Positions 974-14,248 of a DNA stretch of 64,000 bases are shown here, in pieces. Numbering within the stretch: position 1 is the stretch's first letter; every line of letters starts with the position of its first letter. A program made the position numbers and the translations under genes. Source of the stretch: Lentilactobacillus sp. Marseille-Q4993 (lineage in GTDB: Bacteria > Bacillota > Bacilli > Lactobacillales > Lactobacillaceae); the NCBI RefSeq assembly GCF_951230165.1, contig NZ_CATNVB010000003.1, positions 62,001-126,000 on the forward strand. The letters are read 5' to 3'. The notes below the pieces were generated by a model. The model made no database searches. It was not told where the DNA came from and was given only the letters and a program-made list of their open reading frames with translations.

Positions 974-2791
<1,818 letters not shown>

Positions 2792-2931
2792 AAATCTCCC
2801 TCTCCAATTTATACCCACAATGTGAGCAACGTAACAATAAGTATACAGGAGTCATAACTATAATTAAATAGATCAAAGTGCGTAGTTGTTTGAAGCATGT
2901 ACACGAATCGTATGAGTAAAAATCATGATGC

Positions 2932-2949
2932 TTGGGAACAGCGTAAGTT
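2932..2949 (+). repeat. Recombination repeat A (5' border of silent cassette)
   Basis: An 18-bp sequence encoding the WEQRK border, identical to the complement of 8096-8113 and 8672-8689 inside hsdS, and inverted relative to them. Confidence 0.9.
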
Positions 2950-3443
2950 TAATTATTTGCTGACTGCAAAAGATGGTATCAGAAGAGGTCCATTTGGAAG
3001 TTCACTTAAAAAAGATTTCTTCGTGAAAAATGGTCAATATGCAGTATACGAACAAAAGAATGCAATATACGATAACTATGAAGTAAGATACGAAATCAGC
3101 GCAGACCGTTTCAATAAGTTGAAGTCTTTTGAATTGAAGCCAGGTGATTATATATTAAGTGGTGCTGGTACAATTGGCAAAATTTCAAGAGTTCCCAATG
3201 GAATAAAAAAAGGAGTTTTTAACCAAGCATTAATTAGAATTCGTATAAATCACGATTTGGTAAATGATATATATTTTTTAGAATTCATGAGATCAGAGAG
3301 CATGCAGAGAAAGTTAACCTCAACTAATCCTGGTTCAGCTATTACTAATTTGGTACCTATGAAAACTGTTAAAGATTTTGAAGTTAGTGTTCCTAAAATT
3401 GAAGAGCAAAAAAAGGTAGGCTTATTTCTAGTAACGGTTAGTA

Positions 3444-3470
3444 ACCTTATCACCGCCAATCAGCGTCAGC
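3444..3470 (+). repeat. Recombination repeat B (3' border of silent cassette)
   Basis: A 27-bp sequence encoding the ITANQRQ border. It is identical to the complement of 7605-7631 at the end of hsdS and has one mismatch to the complement of 8214-8240 in its middle. Confidence 0.92.
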
Positions 3471-3474
3471 ACAA

Positions 3475-3504
3475 ATCCCACCCTTCTTCCACCGAGAGTG
3501 GGAT
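3475..3504 (-). terminator. Probable terminator of the recombinase gene
   Basis: An ATCCCAC/GTGGGAT stem with a 16-base loop, just beyond the stop codon of the recombinase and immediately after recombination repeat B. The T-run is short. Confidence 0.5.
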
Positions 3505-3514
3505 CTTTTCATCA

Positions 3515-4435
3515 CTATATCAGACTTGCCAAATGCTTCATCACTTTATCATTATCCTGGTTCTCCAACTCCTGGATTATGTGTAAGTATGTCTGCTGTG
3601 TCGTATTCATATTCGAATGACCCAACCTTCTCGCCACCGACGCAATACTAACCCCAGAATATAATAAAAGTGAAGCATGAGTATGCCTTAGGCCATGCAC
3701 CGAAATCACCGGAATTTCTGCTCTTTTACATAATCTTTCAAGCCAATGGTTCACGGTATCGTTATAAACCTTGCCTCGAACAAATATTGGATCATCAAGT
3801 GGCAGGCCCTTTGTAATTTGCGCAAACTGAATCACCGTCTGCCAATCCAATTGAATCCTCCTCTTTGACGATTCGTTCTTAGTTGGTGCAAACCTCGGCA
3901 CATTACTCTTATAGTCCCAAGTCTTACTAACATTTAATGTCTGCCTTGCAAAATCAAAATCTGCTGGGGTCAACCCAAGTGCTTCCGAGAACCGCAACCC
4001 CGTCTTGGCAACTAACAAAATGAAGTAATCCCACGTCAATTCACCATCAGTCAACTCCAAGTTGTCTAGCAGTAATTGCAACTCCTTTTGATTCAAGAAC
4101 TTGGGTTTGTGAAAGCCGGGCTTCCTCCCCTTTATAATCGCCTTTCTTGTTGGATCTTTATCAATCAGGTTTTCTTCCATTGCATCGATTAATGCACTTC
4201 GTAAATGACGGTGAAAATCCATTACCGTTTGTTTTTCATGCGTTTGAGCATAATCGTTCAAAATTTGTTGGTACTCAAGTCGATCAATTTCCTCCAACCT
4301 CAATTCTGGAGCCAGTCCCACTAAATGGCGATGCGTCATAATGTACTTTTTAAACGTAACCTCCCTGACAGCCCCTCGTTTATACAAATTCATCCACTCA
4401 AGAAAATACTGGTGTAACTTCATTCGTTTATCCAT
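3515..4435 (-). CDS. Tyrosine recombinase (XerC/D-type integrase) of the hsdS switching locus
   Basis: A 306-residue phage-integrase-family enzyme. The catalytic residues are visible: Arg148 in TGLRFSEA, His247 and Arg250 in HGLRH, His273 in LGHSN, and the nucleophile Tyr283 in QQTYLHI. A SAM-like N-terminal DNA-binding domain covers about residues 1-105. It sits between hsdR and the inverted half-hsdS. No phage genes or att-like tRNA end are nearby, so I infer that its job is to invert DNA between the hsdS repeats. The same gene arrangement with an adjacent recombinase is established for switching type I systems in streptococci and lactobacilli. Confidence 0.9.
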   Translation of the reverse strand: MDKRMKLHQYFLEWMNLYKRGAVREVTFKKYIMTHRHLVGLAPELRLEEIDRLEYQQILNDYAQTHEKQTVMDFHRHLRSALIDAMEENLIDKDPTRKAIIKGRKPGFHKPKFLNQKELQLLLDNLELTDGELTWDYFILLVAKTGLRFSEALGLTPADFDFARQTLNVSKTWDYKSNVPRFAPTKNESSKRRIQLDWQTVIQFAQITKGLPLDDPIFVRGKVYNDTVNHWLERLCKRAEIPVISVHGLRHTHASLLLYSGVSIASVARRLGHSNMNTTQQTYLHIIQELENQDNDKVMKHLASLI

Positions 4436-4451
4436 AACAACCCCTCCAAAA

Positions 4452-4484
4452 TAAAAAAGTTAGCAACCATCTGGCTACTAACTC
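4452..4484 (-). terminator. Terminator downstream of hsdR
   Basis: On the minus strand, AGTTAG pairs with CTAACT (inner stem AGCCA/TGGTT) and is followed by a run of six Ts, between hsdR and the recombinase gene. Confidence 0.75.
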
Positions 4485-4524
4485 GTTTGTATCTTGAATT
4501 ATGGAAAAACAAAAATTTAAACTT

Positions 4525-7500
4525 TTATCCCCGCGTCATCAATGGTGCAATCTTATTTGTATAGTAATCCTCAACGTCCCCTCTTACTTTCTTCTTCCAA
4601 GCAAGCATGTTGTTTAAATCACTATCAGGGTAACTTTCTTTAAATCGATTAAAAGCTTTTTTGGTCATCAGCTCCGTCATACCCTTTTGTTGCTGACTTT
4701 CTTCCTCAGAATCATAATTAGCCATGACGTACCGCAAGTCATCGTAATCAACCTTATACTCATCAGCAAAATGAGATAACATCTTCTTACTTTCCTGATC
4801 AATCAAGTCTTCCAAAACTTGGTTCAATTGTTGACCAGAATAGTTTTGGGGATCCTTCTGAACATCTTGCCACAAACTCCGGATAATATCGGCCAATGAA
4901 CTATTGGTTTTGGCCAACTCGTCAATATATTCATCAACTTCGCTAACCTCTTTTTTGTTCATCGTGACTTGCTCATTTTCATCATCAGGAACATATGCTT
5001 GAATCAAGCCCATGATGTAACGGTCATCAACCTCTTTTGTATGAAATGAGGTCAACTCATATTCATCGTCAATTTCCAATTCTTCTTCGTCACTACCATC
5101 TTCCTGACGAATTGACTCTAACACATCCTCATAGGTACCGCGCATTTGTTCCATACTTTCATCGTCAATTTCAGAAACATCAATTCGCTCATCTTCTGGT
5201 AGTGATTCTTGATTGTCCAATTCATCAAACGTTCGAATAGCAGATAAATTCTTATCATACTCTTGGAATGCCTGGGCAAAAGCCTTCCTTTTATCAAGCG
5301 GAGCTGCCAGAATCGATGTTGCATCCGGACCAGCATTCATGTACTCCTGCATCTTTTTCTGTGAACTAGCAAACTTATCCCGGGTCGTCTTCCAATCTGG
5401 AGCAAGAATATCATTAGTTCCGCCGTGGGAGTACAGCTTTAAAGCCTCGTCAACATCCTTATCATACGTTTCAGGGTACTGGAACGTAATGATTTGTCCC
5501 CAAGTCTTATTCTTGTCAAAAATCCGATTTGTTCTAGAGAACGCTTGAATCAAGTTCTGTGGGTTAAGCGGTCTTCTATCGAGATAAAGAGTTGATAAGT
5601 TAGGCGAATCAAATCCTGTTAACAGCCGATCAACAACAATAACTATGTCCAACTGAGCCCCGGGCTGCTTATAGTTAGCCTTTTTTCTAGCTAAGCGATC
5701 ATTAACATTCCGGTTATATCCGTCCAGTTCCCCCATTGTATAACTTGTGCCAAACATCTCGTTATAGTCAGCAAGTGATTCCTTCATCTCACTTTGATCA
5801 GCTTGTGATTCAGCTTCGTTTTGAGAAATTGAGTAAGTGATTGCAATTCTAGGAAAATCTGGTGCAACCTCTTGAATTCTTTTAGGTACTCCCTGCTCCT
5901 TAATATACTTCTTGAAAAATTTATAGTACTTTTGGGCCTGACTAATTGAAGAAGTTGTAAAAATAGCAGAGTAACGGTCATTATTCATTAGGCCTTGTTT
6001 TCGGTAAGCTAACTTGATGATGTTCTCAACAACGGACATCATGTGCGAGTCCGATGCGTATACCTCATCCATTTTCTTCTTATCAGATTCATCATTTGAA
6101 TCTTGGGCGTCACTCCCATAGTTCTCAACCTTAAATCCAAGAACCGCCTTATCACGAATAGCATCTTCAATTGTGTATGAGTGCAATACTGGACCGTACA
6201 TCTGCTCGGTTGTCCGAGCATCCTGGCCGTTCTCAGCTCTAGCATTTTGGTCAAATATCGGTGTTCCTGTAAACCCATACCACAACGGTTGCTTATTAAA
6301 GAACTTATCTAGTTCACGCTTTTGGCTTGGAGTAATCGTTCTGTGACATTCATCGACAATAAATGCTAGCCGCATATTCTTCAACTCTGCGTATCTTTTA
6401 GCCCCTTCTGGTTCTTCATCAATTCGTTTAAAAATCGTCTGCATCTTCTGGCGGGTTGTAACCACAACATTTCTATCACCGTTCGTCAACTGATCAGCTA
6501 AATCATAACTGTTGCTAGTTTCATTAATACTGATGGTATCGGTGTTTGCATATGTCTGAAATGCAGAGGTGGTTTGAGCATCCAAATCTTTCCGGTCAAT
6601 TAAAAACACAGTCTTTTTAATCGATGGAATTTGAAGTAAGTTCCTAGCAACCTTATATGACGTTAAAGTCTTACCTGAACCAGTCGTGTGCCAAATAAAT
6701 CCAGATTTACCTTCTTTTGAGGCTTCAAAGATTGCTTGAATCGCATGGATTTGGTACGGCCGCAAGAGAATCAAATTCTTCGCTTCACTATCTAAAACTG
6801 TGTAGTCAGCAATCATATGGTGAGCTGCCGGAATCGACAATACGTCATTAGCAAAGTCCAGGTAATTTTCAACCACCTTATTATTTTCATCAACCCAAGT
6901 TGTTAAAAACTTTGAGTTCAAGTTTTCACCAGCTGAAATGTACCTAGTCATAGCTCCATTTGTCACAATGAACATTTGTACAAAGCAGTAGATATCAGAG
7001 AACTTACCTTCATCAATATATTTTTGAATTTGATGAAAAGCCTGCATATATGGCTGCTTAGGTGTCTTCAATTCAATATGAATGACTGGCAACCCATTAA
7101 TCAACAGTGACACATCAAATCGTCGATCTTGATCCAATGCCATGCTCTTTGGTACTTGAACTTGATGAACGATTTGGTACACGGATGTGCCACCTGAAAC
7201 ATTCGTATTGTTCAGAATAACTAAATCAGCATCTGGATTTGTGGAGTCGTCCCGCTTCACATGAATCCTAACTTGCCGATTGGCCCCCGTCATAAATTCA
7301 GCTGCTCTATAAAATGATGGTTGAATCATTTGAGCTTTAATTGTCGCTTTTTCATTTGCAGTTAGTGGTGCATCTGCAAGCTGTTCCTTGTTATTTGCAG
7401 CAAGAATGGTAAAGAAGTTATCCCATAATTGCGGAATTGTCTTTAAGTCTTCCCGTAGTTGCCACTGATTAACCCCCTGAGTTAGGCGATTGATCAGTTT

Positions 7501-7527
7501 GTTTTCCATCGCTAGTTCTTCTTCCAT
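4525..7527 (-). CDS. hsdR: Type I restriction enzyme, endonuclease/translocase subunit
   Basis: This 1000-residue subunit cuts DNA and drives translocation in the HsdR2M2S complex. The N-terminal PD-(D/E)xK nuclease shows Asp138 and Glu152-Leu-Lys154 (IELK). The superfamily 2 motor shows Walker A TTGSGKT at 281-287 and DECH at 392-395, then FTGTP, DRLLTGFDSP and QAFSRTNR motifs of the second helicase domain. The C-terminal third is acidic and probably contacts the methylase. The ATG start follows a GAGGG site. It lies 24 bp after hsdS, in the order M-S-R. It is intact and looks functional. Confidence 0.96.
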   Translation of the reverse strand: MEEELAMENKLINRLTQGVNQWQLREDLKTIPQLWDNFFTILAANNKEQLADAPLTANEKATIKAQMIQPSFYRAAEFMTGANRQVRIHVKRDDSTNPDADLVILNNTNVSGGTSVYQIVHQVQVPKSMALDQDRRFDVSLLINGLPVIHIELKTPKQPYMQAFHQIQKYIDEGKFSDIYCFVQMFIVTNGAMTRYISAGENLNSKFLTTWVDENNKVVENYLDFANDVLSIPAAHHMIADYTVLDSEAKNLILLRPYQIHAIQAIFEASKEGKSGFIWHTTGSGKTLTSYKVARNLLQIPSIKKTVFLIDRKDLDAQTTSAFQTYANTDTISINETSNSYDLADQLTNGDRNVVVTTRQKMQTIFKRIDEEPEGAKRYAELKNMRLAFIVDECHRTITPSQKRELDKFFNKQPLWYGFTGTPIFDQNARAENGQDARTTEQMYGPVLHSYTIEDAIRDKAVLGFKVENYGSDAQDSNDESDKKKMDEVYASDSHMMSVVENIIKLAYRKQGLMNNDRYSAIFTTSSISQAQKYYKFFKKYIKEQGVPKRIQEVAPDFPRIAITYSISQNEAESQADQSEMKESLADYNEMFGTSYTMGELDGYNRNVNDRLARKKANYKQPGAQLDIVIVVDRLLTGFDSPNLSTLYLDRRPLNPQNLIQAFSRTNRIFDKNKTWGQIITFQYPETYDKDVDEALKLYSHGGTNDILAPDWKTTRDKFASSQKKMQEYMNAGPDATSILAAPLDKRKAFAQAFQEYDKNLSAIRTFDELDNQESLPEDERIDVSEIDDESMEQMRGTYEDVLESIRQEDGSDEEELEIDDEYELTSFHTKEVDDRYIMGLIQAYVPDDENEQVTMNKKEVSEVDEYIDELAKTNSSLADIIRSLWQDVQKDPQNYSGQQLNQVLEDLIDQESKKMLSHFADEYKVDYDDLRYVMANYDSEEESQQQKGMTELMTKKAFNRFKESYPDSDLNNMLAWKKKVRGDVEDYYTNKIAPLMTRG

Positions 7528-7551
7528 ATTATTTCCCTCAGTTCTAATTAT

Positions 7552-8742
7552 TTAGATAAACATTTTTTGTAGCAGACTCTTTTTGAGTTCTTGGAGTTTG
7601 TCGAGCTGACGCTGATTGGCGGTGATAAGGTCATCTACTTTTATGAATATGTTTGAAACGACTTTTTGTTCGGTAGTATTTGGGATGAAAATTTGTAGGT
7701 TTCTTACTAATTCAGAATTTATATTTACTTGAGCTCCTGGCTGGCCATATTTTTGCCAACTTGATTCATAAAATTCTAAAAATTGATACATAAAATTAAT
7801 ATTAAATTTTGGGTTTAAAAATACAATAAAGCCATCATGAATACCCGTTTTAATATAATTGATCACTGGCTTACCAACTGATGCCGCAATACTTAAAATC
7901 AAATGTGGCTCTTCAAGAACTAGCGTTTTCTTAATCCCCGCTTCGGATAGATGCTGTTCCACGTGTTCTATCTTTCCATGTTGCTCAGTCACATCGGATA
8001 TTCGTAGCCATCCAACATCGCTATCTTCTGAAAACCACTTTTTGCTTTTTATTGGTCTTGGACTTGCTCCTCGCCTAATATCTGACAATTCTCCCAACTT
8101 ACGCTGTTCCCAATCGTCAGTGAATCCATCAAATCTGAGCTCTGGAATTTTTGCCCCATTTTTTGGAAACATTTTTTGAAGCAATCCTTTTTTTAATTCT
8201 TGGAGTTTGTCGAGCTGACGCTGATTGGCAGTGATAAGGTAATCAATACTTGAAAATAAGGATGCGACCTGAACAGATTCTTCCTCATTGGGTATTAGTA
8301 CATTAGCATTCTTTATGTCATCAGAATTGATGGATTCAAACGTTGATCCTGTACTATAAATTCTCCAATAATTAACAGTATTATATTTTCTTAATAAGTG
8401 ATAAATAAACATCGAGGCCTTTATACCCGCAACCCCACGTCCTAAAACAACCCTATACTTAGTTAGAGCTACTTCTCCAACAGGAGCTCGGACTGTCAGA
8501 ATAATATCACCTTTCTCTGCAATTTTAGTTTCTTGCTTGGTATAGATTCTTGGTTTTACCCACCCATTTTTGATATCAGCATTTCCTTGAACAAGGATAG
8601 TGTCATCCGGATTATCAGTATAGTTTTCTCCATTAGGGGATTGACCCATTGAAATTTCAGCAACATCAGATAACTTACGCTGTTCCCAATCGTCAGTGAA
8701 TCCCTTGAACCTCAGCCTTGGCTTTTTAGTTGTTTCTTTCAT
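7552..8742 (-). CDS. hsdS: Type I restriction-modification specificity subunit
   Basis: This 396-residue protein selects the DNA target. It has two target recognition domains, about residues 18-170 and 215-370. Each begins after FTDDWEQRKL and ends at (Y/D)LITANQRQLDKLQELKK, the helical spacer repeats. The internal direct repeats at the DNA level match the borders of the inverted cassette at 2932-3470. The start codon overlaps the hsdM stop by one base (TAATG), so translation is coupled. Each half can in principle be exchanged, so the specificity read here is one of several states. Confidence 0.95.
   Translation of the reverse strand: MKETTKKPRLRFKGFTDDWEQRKLSDVAEISMGQSPNGENYTDNPDDTILVQGNADIKNGWVKPRIYTKQETKIAEKGDIILTVRAPVGEVALTKYRVVLGRGVAGIKASMFIYHLLRKYNTVNYWRIYSTGSTFESINSDDIKNANVLIPNEEESVQVASLFSSIDYLITANQRQLDKLQELKKGLLQKMFPKNGAKIPELRFDGFTDDWEQRKLGELSDIRRGASPRPIKSKKWFSEDSDVGWLRISDVTEQHGKIEHVEQHLSEAGIKKTLVLEEPHLILSIAASVGKPVINYIKTGIHDGFIVFLNPKFNINFMYQFLEFYESSWQKYGQPGAQVNINSELVRNLQIFIPNTTEQKVVSNIFIKVDDLITANQRQLDKLQELKKSLLQKMFI
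7605..7631 (-). repeat. Recombination repeat B, copy at the hsdS 3' end
   Basis: Twenty-seven bases identical, in inverted orientation, to 3444-3470. Confidence 0.92.
8096..8113 (-). repeat. Recombination repeat A, copy before the second recognition domain
   Basis: Eighteen bases identical, inverted, to 2932-2949. The match to the third copy at 8672-8689 extends further into the FTDD codons. Confidence 0.9.
8214..8240 (-). repeat. Recombination repeat B, copy after the first recognition domain
   Basis: Differs from the other two B copies at a single base, an A in place of G in the GGCAGTGA part. Confidence 0.9.
8672..8689 (-). repeat. Recombination repeat A, copy before the first recognition domain
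   Basis: Third exact copy of the 18-bp WEQRK-encoding border element. Confidence 0.9.
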
Positions 8743-10328
8743 TAACCCAAGTCCTCCTCAAGGTCATTGATAAACGCATTCAATCCTTCCATAATGCTGT
8801 CATCGTCAGACGTCATATCTTTCAACATTGATACAAGTTCTTTTTCATTCTTCTTAATATCTTGGCGAGTTTCTCTAAGGTCCTTAGATACTTCACGAAG
8901 ATCAATTTCTGGTTCTGGTTCAAAGGTATCTACATAACGAGGAATATTTAAGTTAAACTCATTTTCTTGAATTTCATCGAAGGTAGCAAGGTGCGCAAAT
9001 TTATCTACATCTTCTCGCTTTTCGTATGTGTCGAGAATCTTTTGGATATCTTCTTCCCTCAACATATTTTGAGTTTTAATTTTTTCGAAGTTTTTAGATG
9101 CATCGATGAACATCACATCTCGATCCTTCTTGTCCTTTTTGAGAACAACGATGGTCGTTGGAATACTTGTACTGTAGAACAAGTTTGCGGGCAATCCAAT
9201 AACTGCATCAATAGCACCATCTTCAAGCAATTTTTGACGAATCTTTCCTTCAGTACCGCCACGGAATAGAACCCCATGTGGAAGAACGATTGCCATTGCT
9301 CCACTGTGTTTCAAATGATAGTAACCGTGCAAAAGAAATGCATAATCGGCCTTAGACTTTGGAGGTAAAACACCAAAAGCAGAGAATCTTGGATCATCCT
9401 TGAAACCATCGTTGGCTGACCATTTAAGTGAGTATGGTGGGTTCATAACAACTGAATCAAAGTTGGCAACTTCTTCAGCGGGCCAATCTTCGTCCAATGT
9501 GTCACCATTCCGAAGCTTTTGGTTAGCAATGTCAACGTGGTGAAGAATCATATTCATTCTGGCAAGGTTGAAAGTTGAGGTGTTGATTTCTTGTCCGAAG
9601 TAAGTAATTCTGTCTCCGTTTTTAATGAACCGTTTGAAGTTCAATAGAAGTGAACCAGATCCCATAGCTGGGTCATAGACGGTCATTCCATCTGAGTAGT
9701 CTTTACCAACCAGCGTTAGTTTAGTCAACAATTCAGATACTTGCTTAGGAGTATAGAATTCGCCGGCCTTCTTACCTGATTCTGAAGCAAATTGACTGAT
9801 TAAGTATTCGTAAGCATCCCCGAGCGAATCACCAGATGTTTTAACTAATTCAAGCTTACCAATTGCAGAAATAACCCCAGAGATTGTATCAGCTTGCTTT
9901 TGGGCAGAGCTCCCTAATCGTTTTGAATATAAATCATAATCATCGAACAAGCCTTCAAATACTGAACTTGACCCTTCCAAGCTAGTAAAGGCATTTTGGA
10001 GTTCGCTTAATTGGAAAGTGTGATCATTAACTAGTTTTAAAATGTTGGTATAAGTGTATTGGGGTTGGATAACATAACCAAAATCTGCGCGTAGTTCTTC
10101 TAGCAAATCTGGGTTATCAGCATTTTCTTCATAGACTTTTTGAGCATCTTCCAAAGTGCCGCCGTCTTCACCAAGTAATTCAGAAATTTCATAAAGCATA
10201 TTGTCTGAGAGGTACTTGTAAAAGACCGTTCCTAATAGGTAGTTTTTGTATTCGTTGGCATCCATCTTTGAGCGAAGCACATCCGCTGCGCTGAATAATC
10301 CGCTTTGTAAGCTTGTTGTTTCTGACAT
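8742..10328 (-). CDS. hsdM: Type I restriction-modification N6-adenine methyltransferase subunit
   Basis: The 528-residue protein methylates adenine using S-adenosylmethionine within the M2S core. The N-terminal HsdM helical domain (about 10-150) precedes the catalytic domain with cofactor motif DPAMGSG at 219-225 and catalytic NPPY at 296-299. The C-terminal coiled region contacts HsdS. It begins 2 bp after the small HsdS-like gene and overlaps hsdS by one base, so the genes form one transcription unit. Nothing is missing. Confidence 0.96.
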   Translation of the reverse strand: MSETTSLQSGLFSAADVLRSKMDANEYKNYLLGTVFYKYLSDNMLYEISELLGEDGGTLEDAQKVYEENADNPDLLEELRADFGYVIQPQYTYTNILKLVNDHTFQLSELQNAFTSLEGSSSVFEGLFDDYDLYSKRLGSSAQKQADTISGVISAIGKLELVKTSGDSLGDAYEYLISQFASESGKKAGEFYTPKQVSELLTKLTLVGKDYSDGMTVYDPAMGSGSLLLNFKRFIKNGDRITYFGQEINTSTFNLARMNMILHHVDIANQKLRNGDTLDEDWPAEEVANFDSVVMNPPYSLKWSANDGFKDDPRFSAFGVLPPKSKADYAFLLHGYYHLKHSGAMAIVLPHGVLFRGGTEGKIRQKLLEDGAIDAVIGLPANLFYSTSIPTTIVVLKKDKKDRDVMFIDASKNFEKIKTQNMLREEDIQKILDTYEKREDVDKFAHLATFDEIQENEFNLNIPRYVDTFEPEPEIDLREVSKDLRETRQDIKKNEKELVSMLKDMTSDDDSIMEGLNAFINDLEEDLG

Positions 10329-10330
10329 AA

Positions 10331-10885
10331 TTATTTTCCTCCGTTAATATCGTTCTTATCTAATATAGTAAGAATCGCTTTGTTTATTTTTTTTGAGTAT
10401 TCTCGTTGTAGCCGAATCTGAATGAGCATTTGACGATAAACGTCACCTAACCGCTTTTGAGCTTCAAATGGCGGTAGTTTGATATCTAATCCCCTCACAC
10501 TGCCAGCAGTCATTCTTCTTATCGCAGAACCTTCCATTGTTGTGAACAATTGACGCTTCACCGTTTCCGATTCATTTAGGACATAGCAGATATACCATCT
10601 ATATACCTTGGAATCATCGACCGTCATCCGCATAATGTTCTGTGGAATTATTTTCCCCTCTGACTGTGGTGAAACAATTGTGGATTTCTTAGTCATCAAA
10701 TTGATGATTAAATCCCCCGCAACTAAGCTGTCCCCCGTCGAACTTTTAGCATCCTTACTCCAATAGCCTTGTGATAGATCGAAATCAATATCTTCATTGG
10801 TGTAGATATTTGGATTATCCATCTTTTGACGAAGTACGAAGCTGTTTGCACCAACGGATACTTTTGCAATCTTATCTAATTTCAA
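10331..10885 (-). CDS. Small HsdS-like (single recognition domain) protein at the head of the hsd operon
   Basis: This 184-residue protein resembles half of a type I specificity subunit: one recognition-domain fold with GDLIINLMTKKSTIV and the stretch LPPFEAQKRLGDVYRQM followed by a C-terminal helix, as at HsdS domain borders. It lacks the WEQRK and ITANQRQ repeats of the neighbouring hsdS, so it is not part of the shuffled set. A very strong GAGGAGGAGG ribosome binding site precedes the ATG. It is the first gene of the operon, 2 bp before hsdM. It could be an alternative half-specificity subunit acting as a dimer, or a modulator; which one is unknown. Confidence 0.7.
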   Translation of the reverse strand: MKLDKIAKVSVGANSFVLRQKMDNPNIYTNEDIDFDLSQGYWSKDAKSSTGDSLVAGDLIINLMTKKSTIVSPQSEGKIIPQNIMRMTVDDSKVYRWYICYVLNESETVKRQLFTTMEGSAIRRMTAGSVRGLDIKLPPFEAQKRLGDVYRQMLIQIRLQREYSKKINKAILTILDKNDINGGK

Positions 10886-11236
10886 ATGTTACCTCCTCCT
10901 CTTTTTTAAAAATAAATCAGCTGAGTTATTATTACAAAACTAATTGTAAAAGAGTGAAGATCATTCGTCAACAACTTTTTAAATAAATCTGATGATTTAT
11001 TTAAAAAGCAGAAGCGTTTTTAGATTTCTATTCCTATGTATATATCAAAAATTGAGCAATACATAATTAATTTATGAATTAGGATGAGTATAAGCGTAAC
11101 AAGGAAGTTACGGTGGGGTCAATGGGTAAAAGGGTGTAGTTTGCTTTTGTGTTTTCAGCTAGTTCAAAGAAAAACTATTTATTAGTGAATTATGCTTACA
11201 AAAGTGGAATAATTATAGTCACTAGGGGGAATAACA
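10886..11236. other. Divergent intergenic region between the hsd operon and secreted-protein genes
   Basis: A 351-bp AT-rich non-coding stretch that must hold the hsd promoter (minus) and the promoter of the gene at 11237 (plus). Apart from the perfect hairpin at 10975-11008, I see no clear element. Confidence 0.6.
10975..11008. promoter_or_regulatory. Perfect 15-bp inverted repeat
   Basis: CTTTTTAAATAAATC and its exact complement are separated by a four-base TGAT loop, about 90 bp upstream of the hsd operon start. It may be an operator or a bidirectional terminator-like hairpin. It lacks a long T-run beyond the stem, and function is not shown. Confidence 0.6.
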
Positions 11237-11908
11237 ATGAACAAAAAAATAATCAGTACCATTCTTTTAGGGGTTGGAGCAATGTCCTTATCACTTGTCT
11301 CTAACCAAGAAACCGCATCGGCAAAGAAAACTTACGGAACAATTGGGTATGAGACTGGAAAGAAAATAAATAAGTGGTCAGAATCACATTGGATTAAATT
11401 TATAGGTGGCTCTGAAACCAAAAAGGACTTTATGCACAAGGCAAACTATGTTTTGAAACATAACCATGTTTCTTTAAAGAATCATAATTTATATGTCGCA
11501 ACTACAGGCCACAGATCCTTTCCACTAATAAACTTTTATGCAATTGGAAAAAATAACCACAGATTTTATTTTGATGATTATTATTTTGATAATAAAAGCG
11601 GAATTAAAAAGGAAAAAGTGATTGAATTAATGCCTAAAATGCTCAACAAAAGCGATAAAATCACAAATCCATCACACGGTAAACACTGGGTAGACTATGC
11701 AATGAATACCTATTATGAAACTGATACTGATGGAACGTATATTAAAGCTCCTGGTTTCAAAGATCCATATTACTATCAAGATAATCTATTTAACTATATG
11801 CCAAACATGGGCGGTGCAATCAATGGTATGGGAGCCGTCAATACTAAGAAAAAGATTTTGATTCAAGCTCCAGATATGTTTAAGTACGAGTGGCCAACGG
11901 GTAATTAA
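11237..11908 (+). CDS. Secreted protein of unknown function
   Basis: A 223-residue protein with a clear signal peptide: Lys-rich start, hydrophobic stretch about residues 6-22, and likely cleavage near ASA-KK at about 29. The mature part is rich in Lys, His, Tyr and Asn, and basic like its neighbours. No LPxTG anchor or known domain is recognised. It is followed after 41 bp by another secreted protein, so the two probably form an operon. Confidence 0.7.
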   Translation: MNKKIISTILLGVGAMSLSLVSNQETASAKKTYGTIGYETGKKINKWSESHWIKFIGGSETKKDFMHKANYVLKHNHVSLKNHNLYVATTGHRSFPLINFYAIGKNNHRFYFDDYYFDNKSGIKKEKVIELMPKMLNKSDKITNPSHGKHWVDYAMNTYYETDTDGTYIKAPGFKDPYYYQDNLFNYMPNMGGAINGMGAVNTKKKILIQAPDMFKYEWPTGN

Positions 11909-11949
11909 TCAGCTTTGAGATTAATACAGCACATAGGGGGACAACAATA

Positions 11950-12804
11950 ATGCAATTCAACAAAAAAACGCTAATAAATTTAATTCTATTTGCTATTGCT
12001 TGTGTCTTTACCTTCTCTGTGGGTACTTCAGGCCAGTACAAAATTGCTTACGCTAAACACTATAAAGATGTAAAGATTTGGAGTCAAAAGCGAATGCATA
12101 TGAAAAGTATTACGCTGACTCACGGAAAAATATACACCTATCCAGATTTAACTGATAAGCACCCAATTAAAATATCAAAAGCAAAAACTGGTGAGAGTTT
12201 TTGGTGGATTTATGAGATAAAGTATAGACTTAGAAACGGGCGCTGGGCGCTTTACCGATGTGTTAAGACTACTCCAGGAAAGCATAAATTTTATGTTGGG
12301 TACGTTTTTCATAAATACACCACTCATCCTAAGTGGGTATCTAAAATTGCCATTCCTAAAGTTGGTAAACACTTAGCTAATTCCCAAAAAGATGTGATGC
12401 TTTTATCTAAGCCTAAAAAATCAGGTGGCCTAATTAATAGCTATAGTCGCGTACCTGGTATGCGAACTGCAAAATTGTATGATGGCAATTACATTTACTG
12501 GCTAACAAACCATCCAAAATTTGCTGTTGAATCTGTTCCTGGTATCCACAGCTTATCTGAAAAATTTGTAAACCATACAAGGCATTGGCAAATGTACTGG
12601 ACAAATGATGCACCAATTGACTACGGAACTACTCCTGGAAAGAAAGGATTTAGGTTATTCAGCCATATGTATGATCCACTACAATCATATTTTCCTTTAA
12701 TACTAGGTGGTAAATACGGTAACCAAGGTTTTTCAACACTGTATAATTGGCACCAGAAGATACTATTGGTAAATAGGCAAACGTATAATTACAAAGCAAA
12801 CTAA
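11950..12804 (+). CDS. Secreted protein of unknown function
   Basis: A 284-residue exported protein with a signal peptide (hydrophobic stretch about residues 10-27, cleavage probably after AYA near 35). The mature chain is basic and aromatic (Lys, His, Trp, Tyr) with no recognised domain. A TAGGGGG ribosome binding site precedes the ATG. It is probably co-transcribed with the upstream gene and ends at a strong terminator. Its composition resembles the many other secreted proteins in this window, although it lacks their LRG-type motif. Confidence 0.7.
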   Translation: MQFNKKTLINLILFAIACVFTFSVGTSGQYKIAYAKHYKDVKIWSQKRMHMKSITLTHGKIYTYPDLTDKHPIKISKAKTGESFWWIYEIKYRLRNGRWALYRCVKTTPGKHKFYVGYVFHKYTTHPKWVSKIAIPKVGKHLANSQKDVMLLSKPKKSGGLINSYSRVPGMRTAKLYDGNYIYWLTNHPKFAVESVPGIHSLSEKFVNHTRHWQMYWTNDAPIDYGTTPGKKGFRLFSHMYDPLQSYFPLILGGKYGNQGFSTLYNWHQKILLVNRQTYNYKAN

Positions 12805-12807
12805 TAT

Positions 12808-12859
12808 TAAAAAGCGTCTCAAACTAGTTCACAATAATAACTAGCTTGAGGCGCTTTAT
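12808..12859. terminator. Bidirectional hairpin terminator
   Basis: AAAGCG-CTCAA-CTAGTT pairs with AACTAG-TTGAG-CGCTTT between two convergent genes, with A and T runs at the two ends. Confidence 0.85.
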
Positions 12860-12875
12860 ACTTATATTTCACTTA

Positions 12876-13313
12876 TTATTTATGATAATAATACGTAGCC
12901 TTTAACGGAGACATTAATCCCCCACCAGACGGTTTATAATCAGCTAACGCTTGCTTGCCATTATACTTAACCGCTTTTAGCATAGTCCATGCATCCGTAC
13001 CATTTTGGGACAGAAGCCACTTACCATGGTCTTTTTGAACAACTAACTGGCGGGTTTTATAATAATGCTTCTTTCCTGACAGTTCGTAGTAGTACCTAAC
13101 TTTATGGTTATGGTACTGATAGGATTTAAAATAATATTTACTGATGTTGAAAACTGAAGTATCGCCATTTTTATAATGATGATACCAATTACCCCGAATG
13201 GACTTTGGGGTTGTCACATCTTTTGATTTGGCGTAGGACGTGGTTGAACTTAACCCAACACCACCACTAATTATCGCAATTAAAGTTAATTGCATCCAAG
13301 TTCGTTTTTTCAT
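12876..13313 (-). CDS. Small secreted protein, TPKSIRGNW-type family
   Basis: A 145-residue protein with a signal peptide (hydrophobic residues about 7-25, cleavage near SYA-KS). Right after it comes TPKSIRGNW, a variant of the Pro-x-x-(Leu/Ile/Val)-Arg-Gly-x-(Trp/Phe/Tyr) core shared by several small secreted proteins here. The remainder is a beta-rich, very basic Lys/Tyr/His chain ending in a YYYHK-like tail, close to those of the genes at 22663 and 48978. Function is unknown. A GAAAGGAG site precedes the ATG. Confidence 0.72.
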   Translation of the reverse strand: MKKRTWMQLTLIAIISGGVGLSSTTSYAKSKDVTTPKSIRGNWYHHYKNGDTSVFNISKYYFKSYQYHNHKVRYYYELSGKKHYYKTRQLVVQKDHGKWLLSQNGTDAWTMLKAVKYNGKQALADYKPSGGGLMSPLKATYYYHK

Positions 13314-13346
13314 TATTAATCTCCTTTCGTATTATTTTAAATCTAT

Positions 13347-13835
13347 TTAATGAGATCCATTCGCCAAACCACCATAACTATGCGGTACCTTATGACTTAC
13401 AAAATCAAACCATACTCCACCTTGATACCCTCTAATGACTTTGTACTTTTTCCCATTAATTTTTCGATACGTGAGTCCAAGACCGTTACCGGGAAATGCA
13501 CTTGATGCCGCGTATTTCAAGTTTGGTTGTAAATAGAAAATTTTGACTCCATTCGCTACTTTGTAAAAACCTTTAAATGACATTTTGTGAGCATTGGACT
13601 TGGCACTAGTTGATATCTTAAAGGCCTTCACTCCGGGTGATTTAATATAGGCAGAACTTTTTGATATTTTGATAGTTCTCCACGTTTTCTTACCATTATA
13701 TTGATAGAATGTACCTCTAACAGATTTTGGAGTTGTTGCAGCATATGTGCTATTCGAATCTGAAACAATCGCAAAAGTGATTCCCAAACTAACTGATGCA
13801 AGTACGATAGCAACAATTTTCTTAATTCCCATCAT
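13347..13835 (-). CDS. Small secreted protein, TPKSVRGTF-type family
   Basis: I place the start at 13835 (or the adjacent ATG at 13832), behind a GAGGAGAAAG site. An upstream in-frame start at 13889 would overlap the terminator of the previous gene. The 162-residue protein has a signal peptide ending near TYA, then the family core TPKSVRGTF followed by basic beta-rich sequence. No catalytic motif is recognised. It belongs to the run of minus-strand paralogues from 12.9 to 14.7 kb. Confidence 0.68.
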   Translation of the reverse strand: MMGIKKIVAIVLASVSLGITFAIVSDSNSTYAATTPKSVRGTFYQYNGKKTWRTIKISKSSAYIKSPGVKAFKISTSAKSNAHKMSFKGFYKVANGVKIFYLQPNLKYAASSAFPGNGLGLTYRKINGKKYKVIRGYQGGVWFDFVSHKVPHSYGGLANGSH

Positions 13836-13865
13836 TCTTTCTCCTCGCTTGTATATAATCCTAAA

Positions 13866-13911
13866 AAGTAAGAGTCCAATTCTATCCAAAAAGAATTGGG
13901 CTCTTATTTTA
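13866..13911 (-). terminator. Terminator of the gene at 13913
   Basis: On the minus strand AATAAGAG-CCAATTCT pairs with AGAATTGG-CTCTTA and is followed by a T-run. Confidence 0.8.
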
Positions 13912-13912
13912 A

Positions 13913-14248
13913 CTATCTAGTTAAAACAAGGCCTCTCGCCTTAGCTTTATGCTTGCTAATATAAGTGAACTTATCTGTATAATGATAACCTTGAACTTTA
14001 AACTTCAAAGAATATTTATTGTGACCAGTTTTTTTATAACTCACTTTACCAGTGCCACCGCCCTTACCATATACGGTAAGCTTATTCTTGGTGATCTTGT
14101 ATACTGGATAGCCTTCATTTTTCCATGTACCACGAAGAACCTTTGGTGATCCCTTATGCCATGAGCTTGCTCCGGCTGAAACGGTCATGCCGCCAAGTCC
14201 AAGAAGTGTGGTGGATAGAAGTATGAGTGCGATTTGTTTGGTTTTCAT
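13913..14248 (-). CDS. Small secreted protein, WHKGSPKVLRGTW family
   Basis: This 111-residue protein has a signal peptide (about residues 1-27) followed at once by SSWHKGSPKVLRGTW, the fullest form of the family core. The rest is a short basic domain with Lys/Tyr/Gly-rich strands and the fragment VSYKKTGHNKYSLKFK, which recurs in the paralogues. An AAAGGGGG ribosome binding site precedes the ATG. The role is unknown; a small wall- or surface-associated protein is the simplest reading. Confidence 0.75.
   Translation of the reverse strand: MKTKQIALILLSTTLLGLGGMTVSAGASSWHKGSPKVLRGTWKNEGYPVYKITKNKLTVYGKGGGTGKVSYKKTGHNKYSLKFKVQGYHYTDKFTYISKHKAKARGLVLTR

What the first reader, a model, noticed from the sequence alone, without database searches (positions are those of the whole stretch)
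2932..10885. Type I restriction-modification locus built to switch specificity by inversion
The sequence shows six copies of two border elements: element A (18 bp) at 2932, 8096 and 8672, and element B (27 bp) at 3444, 7605 and 8214. They flank three recognition domains: two in hsdS and one in a silent cassette in the opposite orientation. A tyrosine recombinase with a complete catalytic set lies between. Established knowledge: similar loci shuffle hsdS in streptococci and lactobacilli and change genome-wide methylation. Here hsdR and the recombinase lie inside the invertible span, so a single flip also turns hsdR over. Two successive flips, at A then at B, would swap the domain and return hsdR.
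Basis: partly seen in the sequence, partly recalled or inferred. Interest (0 to 1): 0.85.

Follow-up and report, generated by a model that had tools for sequence, protein, structure and literature searches.

The report
Inverting restriction locus carrying hsdR along
This lactic acid bacterium carries a DNA-recognition gene of a type I restriction system laid out to be reshuffled by flipping a DNA segment, and unusually the flip would also carry the DNA-cutting gene; flip-switches of this kind are known, this layout is rare, and a possible self-regulating switch in front of the operon looks new.

Summary
Element A (18 bp, three identical copies) and B (27 bp; 27/27 and 26/27) have no further exact copy in the 2.28 Mb genome. 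They bracket two TRDs in hsdS and one in an opposite-strand cassette, with a tyrosine recombinase and hsdR between. In silico, inversions at A and B give 24 isomers, all with open HsdS frames; 12 turn hsdR away from hsdM, and A-then-B swaps a TRD and returns hsdR. A relative (L108) looks caught flipped: 25-bp A repeats enclose recombinase-hsdR-hsdS on the strand opposite hsdM, and re-inverting turns a 31-residue stub into a 415-residue hsdS. hsdR lies inside the span in 4 of 36 scored loci (32 outside), one being Mycoplasmopsis cynos, so the layout has precedent: a new variant of a known kind. Inversion in this strain is not shown. Beyond the finding: the operon's first gene is a short HsdS-like protein resembling Staphylococcus hsdS_short, and its promoter-like site lies between two palindromes. 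Two strict palindromes precede 10 of 48 relatives (0.01 expected) and 0 of 31 operons lacking the gene, suggesting an undescribed autoregulator.

The parts
2897..3586 (+). half-hsdS cassette (TRD3) on the opposite strand, presumed silent
   Evidence: Methylase_S 9.7e-11; no promoter-like site listed on the + strand in 2600-2897
2932..2949 (+). element A copy 1
   Evidence: 18/18 identical to the other copies
3444..3470 (+). element B copy 1
   Evidence: 27/27 to the copy at 7605
3487..3503 (+). terminator-like hairpin between cassette and recombinase
   Evidence: 8 such sites found, 6.0 expected by chance
3515..4435 (-). tyrosine recombinase, candidate invertase
   Evidence: PF00589 6.3e-24; of 32 related loci 25 have hsdS ORFs on both strands
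4457..4484 (-). terminator-like hairpin between hsdR and recombinase
   Evidence: 12 pairs and T run
4525..7527 (-). hsdR, inside the invertible span
   Evidence: TIGR00348 3.5e-92, EcoR124_C
7552..8742 (-). hsdS next to hsdM (TRD1 + TRD2)
   Evidence: two Methylase_S stretches
7605..7631 (-). element B copy 2
8096..8113 (-). element A copy 2
8214..8240 (-). element B copy 3 (26/27)
8672..8689 (-). element A copy 3
8742..10328 (-). hsdM
   Evidence: TIGR00497 3.1e-117
10331..10885 (-). h: short single-TRD HsdS-like protein, first gene of the operon, outside the invertible span
   Evidence: no Pfam match; PADLOC Specificity_I 2.9e-11; profile of six h proteins hits solved S subunits; first gene in related operons
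10912..10929 (.). proximal palindrome ATAAATC-AGCT-GAGTTAT (one mismatch)
10943..10971 (-). promoter-like site TTGACG-17-TACAAT between the two palindromes
   Evidence: only minus-strand site with 10 of 12 matches; the total number of sites (26) equals chance (26.5)
10983..11000 (.). distal palindrome ATAAATC-TGAT-GATTTAT
   Evidence: this exact form once in the genome

Best explanation
[quoted passage not shown] The recombinase inverts DNA between oppositely oriented A copies or B copies, moving TRD3 into the hsdS beside hsdM and TRD1 or TRD2 into the cassette. Because hsdR and the recombinase gene lie inside, every odd number of flips turns hsdR away from hsdM and puts the cassette's foreign tail on that HsdS (loss or change of restriction and modification); every even number restores hsdR and the normal tail, in half of these isomers with a two-TRD HsdS (all six ordered TRD pairs are reachable), in the other half with a single TRD. 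Shown: elements, gene order, frames of the isomers, a relative in a flipped arrangement. Inferred: that this recombinase acts on these elements, that it happens in this strain, and the phenotypes.
For: Repeats exact, correctly oriented and without further exact copies in the genome. All 24 isomers keep open HsdS frames, 12 with and 12 without hsdR beside hsdM. Of 32 loci with a related recombinase, 25 have hsdS ORFs on both strands, many with A-like and B-like inverted repeats. L108: 25-bp A repeats flank recombinase-hsdR-hsdS, inverted relative to hsdM; re-inversion turns a 31-residue stub overlapping the hsdM stop into a 415-residue hsdS. L107 of the same genus has hsdM, hsdS and hsdR on one strand. 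hsdS rearrangement was found in transformed clones of L. reuteri for LreRMII with recombinase lsrA, hsdR at the cluster end (PMC6122466, passages); PsrA makes inversions at 15-bp repeats in vitro (PMC7096588, passages).
Against: One arrangement in the assembly, no alternative-junction contig; no reads or methylomes. A-element codons look alike in the five matches from loci without a detected recombinase, so A conservation alone does not prove a recombination site. A terminator-like hairpin before the recombinase may keep its expression low. Descent of this recombinase from the same group as PsrA or LsrA was not tested.
Confidence: 0.83

Rival explanations
1. The locus inverts but mainly works as an ON/OFF switch for restriction and HsdS function, with TRD exchange secondary (overlaps with the best explanation rather than excluding it).
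For: hsdR orientation and HsdS tail are locked together in all 24 isomers; in L108 only one hsdS ORF was detected in 19.9 kb, so its flip only disconnects hsdS and hsdR from hsdM.
Against: The window carries a third, different TRD flanked by both A and B, which a pure ON/OFF switch does not need.
Confidence: 0.3
2. A frozen relic: recombinase or sites no longer act, and the repeats are alike because HsdS conserved regions are under protein constraint.
For: WEQRK codons are similar in the five matches from loci without a detected recombinase; single assembled arrangement.
Against: Intact recombinase frame with catalytic residues; 27/27 and 18/18 identity with abrupt loss of identity on the cassette side; all isomers in frame.
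Confidence: 0.12
3. TRD exchange occurs by ordinary homologous recombination between hsdS copies or with incoming DNA, and the recombinase is incidental.
For: The two hsdS halves share a 78-bp repeat at 88%; a 531-bp identical inverted block in M. cynos L167 shows that longer tracts also arise.
Against: The cassette shares only 18-27 bp with hsdS, short for homologous recombination (recalled); the recombinase is linked to hsdS in many genera.
Confidence: 0.05

Closest known systems
Lactobacillus reuteri LreRMII with lsrA (PMC6122466, passages)
   Same: Lactobacillaceae type I locus; recombinase between two hsdS genes; TRD rearrangements found in clones
   Different: hsdR and hsdM are the first and last genes, outside the hsdS-lsrA-hsdS unit; two full hsdS genes instead of one plus a half cassette
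Streptococcus pneumoniae cod/SpnIII locus with PsrA (PMC4948785 and PMC7096588, passages)
   Same: tyrosine recombinase, short inverted repeats, silent hsdS donors
   Different: hsdR and hsdM are co-transcribed with hsdSA; that they stay outside the inverting part is my reading of the passages
Mycoplasmopsis cynos NZ_LR214986.1 locus (L167)
   Same: homologous recombinase; 24-29 bp inverted repeats in hsdS genes with hsdR between them
   Different: recombinase on the other strand, more hsdS genes, no h-like gene annotated before hsdM
Mycoplasma pulmonis hsd loci (layout recalled; Dybvig 1998 not held; inversions and loss of activity in a PMC4948785 passage)
   Same: inversions change specificity and can abolish restriction; hsdR and hsdM between hsdS genes (recalled)
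   Different: putative recombinase gene lies elsewhere in the genome (PMC2824730 passage)
Staphylococcus xylosus hsdRSMS with hsdS_short (PMC10030836, passages, sections 3.3 and 4)
   Same: short HsdS-like protein directly before hsdM; Staphylococcus plasmid relatives found by tblastn share the order
   Different: no inversion cassette in the parts read; authors suggest a stabilising role for hsdS_short, and no operator or autoregulation appears in the parts read

Membership tests
Type I restriction-modification system | hsdR, hsdM and hsdS genes together | tested here: met
Inverting type I system | second variable hsdS sequence on the opposite strand sharing inverted repeats at TRD borders | tested here: met
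Inverting type I system | locus-encoded tyrosine recombinase (usual, not universal: M. pulmonis) | tested here: met
Inverting type I system | several arrangements within one clone | not testable with these tools
   single assembly, no reads; only the relative L108 shows a flipped arrangement
Inverting type I system | different methylation motifs for different arrangements | not testable with these tools
   needs methylome data
PsrA/LsrA recombinase group | common ancestry with PsrA or LsrA | not tested
   PsrA and LsrA sequences were not compared
hsdS_short (S. xylosus hsdRSMS) | short HsdS-like protein directly before hsdM | tested here: met
   184 residues, adjacent to hsdM; same order in two Staphylococcus plasmids
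hsdS_short (S. xylosus hsdRSMS) | sequence homology to hsdS_short | tested here: inconclusive
   Staphylococcus plasmid relatives match at 4e-5 and 9e-6 over half the protein, 21-22% identity; the S. xylosus sequence itself was not compared
Type II-style controller (C) protein | small helix-turn-helix protein | tested here: not met
   h matches HsdS profiles and solved S subunits; 'works like' only
Autoregulator reading palindromic operators | binds the palindromes and changes transcription | not testable with these tools
   only sequence association:

The most novel reading that the evidence does not exclude
The first gene of the operon (h, a single-TRD HsdS-like protein) is an autoregulator: as a dimer it reads two palindromes of the type RTANWT-N6-AWNTAY that bracket the operon promoter, so a restriction-enzyme recognition domain has become a controller protein, here placed before an invertible hsdS-hsdR module. 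It may at the same time be the accessory methylation subunit known as hsdS_short, linking modification and transcription.
Probability: 0.45. Interest if true: 0.75.

Novelty: new variant of a known kind. Interest (0 to 1): 0.55.

Why it matters
If it inverts, one event changes both what the cell methylates and whether its nuclease gene is linked to its methylase, so immunity and epigenetic state would switch together; L108 suggests that flipped states occur in nature. The palindromes before h make two open points testable: how such type I operons are regulated, and what the short HsdS of Staphylococcus (exact role left open in PMC10030836) does.

Tried and rejected
Codon conservation of A as proof of a recombination site: inconclusive, only five matches from loci without a detected recombinase. 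Strain-level isomers in Ligilactobacillus salivarius plasmids: given up, because the stretches opened (later 72) lack a full hsdR-hsdM-hsdS set beside the integrase. DNA search of plasmids with the locus: 21 records, none covering 80%, the 20 listed match 1-2% of the query. Rfam on the window: 0 families. Alternative-junction contigs in the own genome: none.

Palindrome tests, misses included., 22 loci, N4 test: at the floor (0.0033) in L111, L112, L113, L116, L117, 0.0066 in the window, not significant (0.09 or more) in the other 16. In the any-gap test of the same call L119 and L156 also reach the floor (0.010) and L121 has 0.020; L156 and L121 are T-rich runs., 26 loci, four of them (L169, L180, L181, L184) genes already seen: N4 p below 0.05 in L169, L171, L172, L173, L175, L177, L188, L191, L192, L193, L194; 0.06 or more in L174, L176, L178, L179, L180-L187, L189, L190, L195. 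Staphylococcus L200, L201 best at another gap (8); L204 p 0.325. The motif RTANWT-N6-AWNTAY was written after seeing part of these data, so its shuffle expectation is optimistic. My first count wrongly dropped L190 and kept L114 beside L171 (same gene); one search is the corrected count (53 rows, 5 repeats dropped). Controls took the first ATG as start.

hsdR inside or outside: three repeat loci dropped, L065 had no mapped gene, M. cynos L167 and Listeria L168 were added by hand, L036 counts as outside because its first hsdS is cut by the contig end.

Structure prediction of h was asked for three times and never ran, machine busy.
Full report
Observation. A is 18/18 in three copies, B is 27/27 in two and 26/27 in the third. 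Exact copies occur three times each in the whole genome, all here, against 0 for the patterns read backwards. On the cassette side identity ends within a few bases of the elements, and the three TRDs are different.

What it can do. A breadth-first enumeration of inversions at A and B gives 24 isomers. In every one the hsdS frame beside hsdM and the left-hand hsdS frame stay open (193-438 and 182-427 residues). hsdR stays with hsdM in 12 and is turned in 12. The normal HsdS tail goes with hsdR, so turned isomers have the cassette's foreign tail on the HsdS beside hsdM. Of the 12 unturned isomers, 6 give a two-TRD HsdS, one for each ordered pair of the three TRDs, and 6 a single-TRD HsdS.

Relatives. 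The recombinase has 32 related loci in the species-level genome collection, 23 of them Lactobacillaceae by record title (family assignment recalled). The commonest order is hsdR-hsdM-hsdS-recombinase-inverted hsdS (13 of the 32). The three closest DNA relatives of the window's hsdR (68-71% identity) lie in h-hsdM-hsdS-hsdR (L102, L104) or hsdM-hsdS-hsdR (L103) operons; no recombinase was detected in those stretches nor in L107 and L109. So the window looks like that operon type plus a recombinase and cassette behind hsdR (inference). With hsdS-to-hsdS inverted repeats of 14 bp or more as criterion, 36 loci could be scored: hsdR inside in 4 (window, L057, L163, M. cynos L167), outside in 32; 25 were not scorable, L108 among them because its second A lies in a stub. 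The sample follows my searches and is not a census; L167 and L168 were added by hand. L036 has the order hsdS-hsdR-recombinase-inverted hsdS but its first hsdS is cut by the contig end and shows no B, so it counted as outside.

A flipped relative. In L108 (genome G098, one contig) hsdM is followed by a 31-residue hsdS stub ending in A and then, on the other strand, recombinase, hsdR and an hsdS without its normal start, up to a second A. Re-inverting between the 25-bp repeats gives a 415-residue hsdS whose TTG start overlaps the hsdM stop. L107, of the same genus, has hsdM, hsdS (in two overlapping ORF pieces) and hsdR on one strand and 74% DNA identity to L108 over hsdR. This is the strongest evidence that blocks containing hsdR flip; it is one assembly and the event is inferred.

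The first gene, h. The ORF 10331-10885 has no Pfam match but matches HsdS profiles (2.9e-11), and a profile of six h proteins hits solved S subunits. With the window h as query 35 of 301 family genomes had a match at E 1e-3, and with the profile 39 of 395 order genomes at 1e-8; some of these matches lie in full-length HsdS. Of 26 loci examined next, hsdM follows in 14, hsdR in 9, neither in 3. Staphylococcus, Sutcliffiella and Halobacillus plasmids carry such a gene before hsdM. In size and position it corresponds to hsdS_short of S. xylosus, which was needed for correct methylation in E. coli and was toxic when expressed from a plasmid; removing it did not markedly change hsdM or hsdS transcript levels, but from a foreign promoter, so this does not test autoregulation (PMC10030836, sections 3.3 and 4).

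Operator-like palindromes. Upstream of h in the window lie ATAAATC-N4-GAGTTAT (10912) and ATAAATC-N4-GATTTAT (10983), with the best promoter-like site of the minus strand between them; the exact form occurs once in the genome. A shuffle test for paired palindromes with a 4-base spacer gave p 0.0033-0.0066 for the window, L111, L112, L113, L116 and L117, 6 of 22 loci, and 0.09 or more for the other 16. In the order-wide set 11 of 26 are below 0.05 (one a repeat), among them L188, L191 and L192, h-hsdR operons that share another motif, AAATAT-N4-ATATTT. Two Bacillaceae plasmids have GTAATT-N6-AATTAC twice, and two Staphylococcus plasmids have one GTAGTT-N6-AACTAC plus an imperfect second copy. 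Two strict copies of RTANWT-N6-AWNTAY occur in 10 of 48 h loci (0.01 expected from shuffles), at least one in 18 of 48 (1.57 expected), and none in 31 operons without a detected h (N4 pair test p below 0.01 in 0 of 31). The window has one strict copy; its second has a mismatch. The arms broadly follow the h tree: ATAAAT, ATATTT and ATACTT in the window's clade, GTAATT in eight others, GTAGTT in the two Staphylococcus, AAATAT in one h-hsdR clade; L174, L178, L179 and L204 show none, and L172 carries GTAATT although it groups nearer the window's side.

Literature. Inverting type I systems are well described (PMC7394358, PMC6122466, PMC4948785, PMC7096588; passages). HsdC of Mollicutes (a C-protein homologue) and RptR of E. 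coli (79-residue homologues) regulate type I operons but are not HsdS-like by what I read (PMC5282649, first of three parts; PMC12255303, passages). Three searches for an HsdS-type autoregulator listed none that I recognised; for most listed papers I saw only title and start of abstract, and subscription journals are mostly missing from the library.

Verdict. New variant of a known kind: an inverting type I locus with hsdR inside the invertible span, structurally convincing, activity untested in this strain. The more surprising lead is the palindrome-bracketed promoter before the short HsdS-like gene.

Noticed in passing
window 10331-11005: Short HsdS-like first gene with two palindromes bracketing the operon's promoter-like site; two strict palindromes also precede 10 of 48 related genes and 0 of 31 operons without a detected h.
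   Followed up: yes
window 974-2818 (-): 614-residue protein with a long Glu-Pro run coded by a GGTTCT tandem tract (about 1959-2084); no Pfam, NCBIfam or PADLOC match at 1e-3. A 6-bp unit would keep the frame if copy number changed.
   Followed up: no
window 4457-4484: Terminator-like hairpin between hsdR and the recombinase, which may keep the recombinase at low level.
   Followed up: no
L167 7209-7739 / 13103-13633: 531-bp identical inverted TRD block in Mycoplasmopsis cynos hsdS genes, suggesting recent copying of a whole TRD.
   Followed up: no
   Followed up: partly
L204 4857-7957 (pMP118) and L165 6809-9903: Ligilactobacillus salivarius megaplasmids carry an h-like gene plus an N-6 methylase gene with a related recombinase divergent next to it, without annotated hsdR or full hsdS in the stretch.
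   Followed up: partly
window 11237-14248: Five small ORFs in a row whose N-termini look like signal peptides by eye.
   Followed up: no
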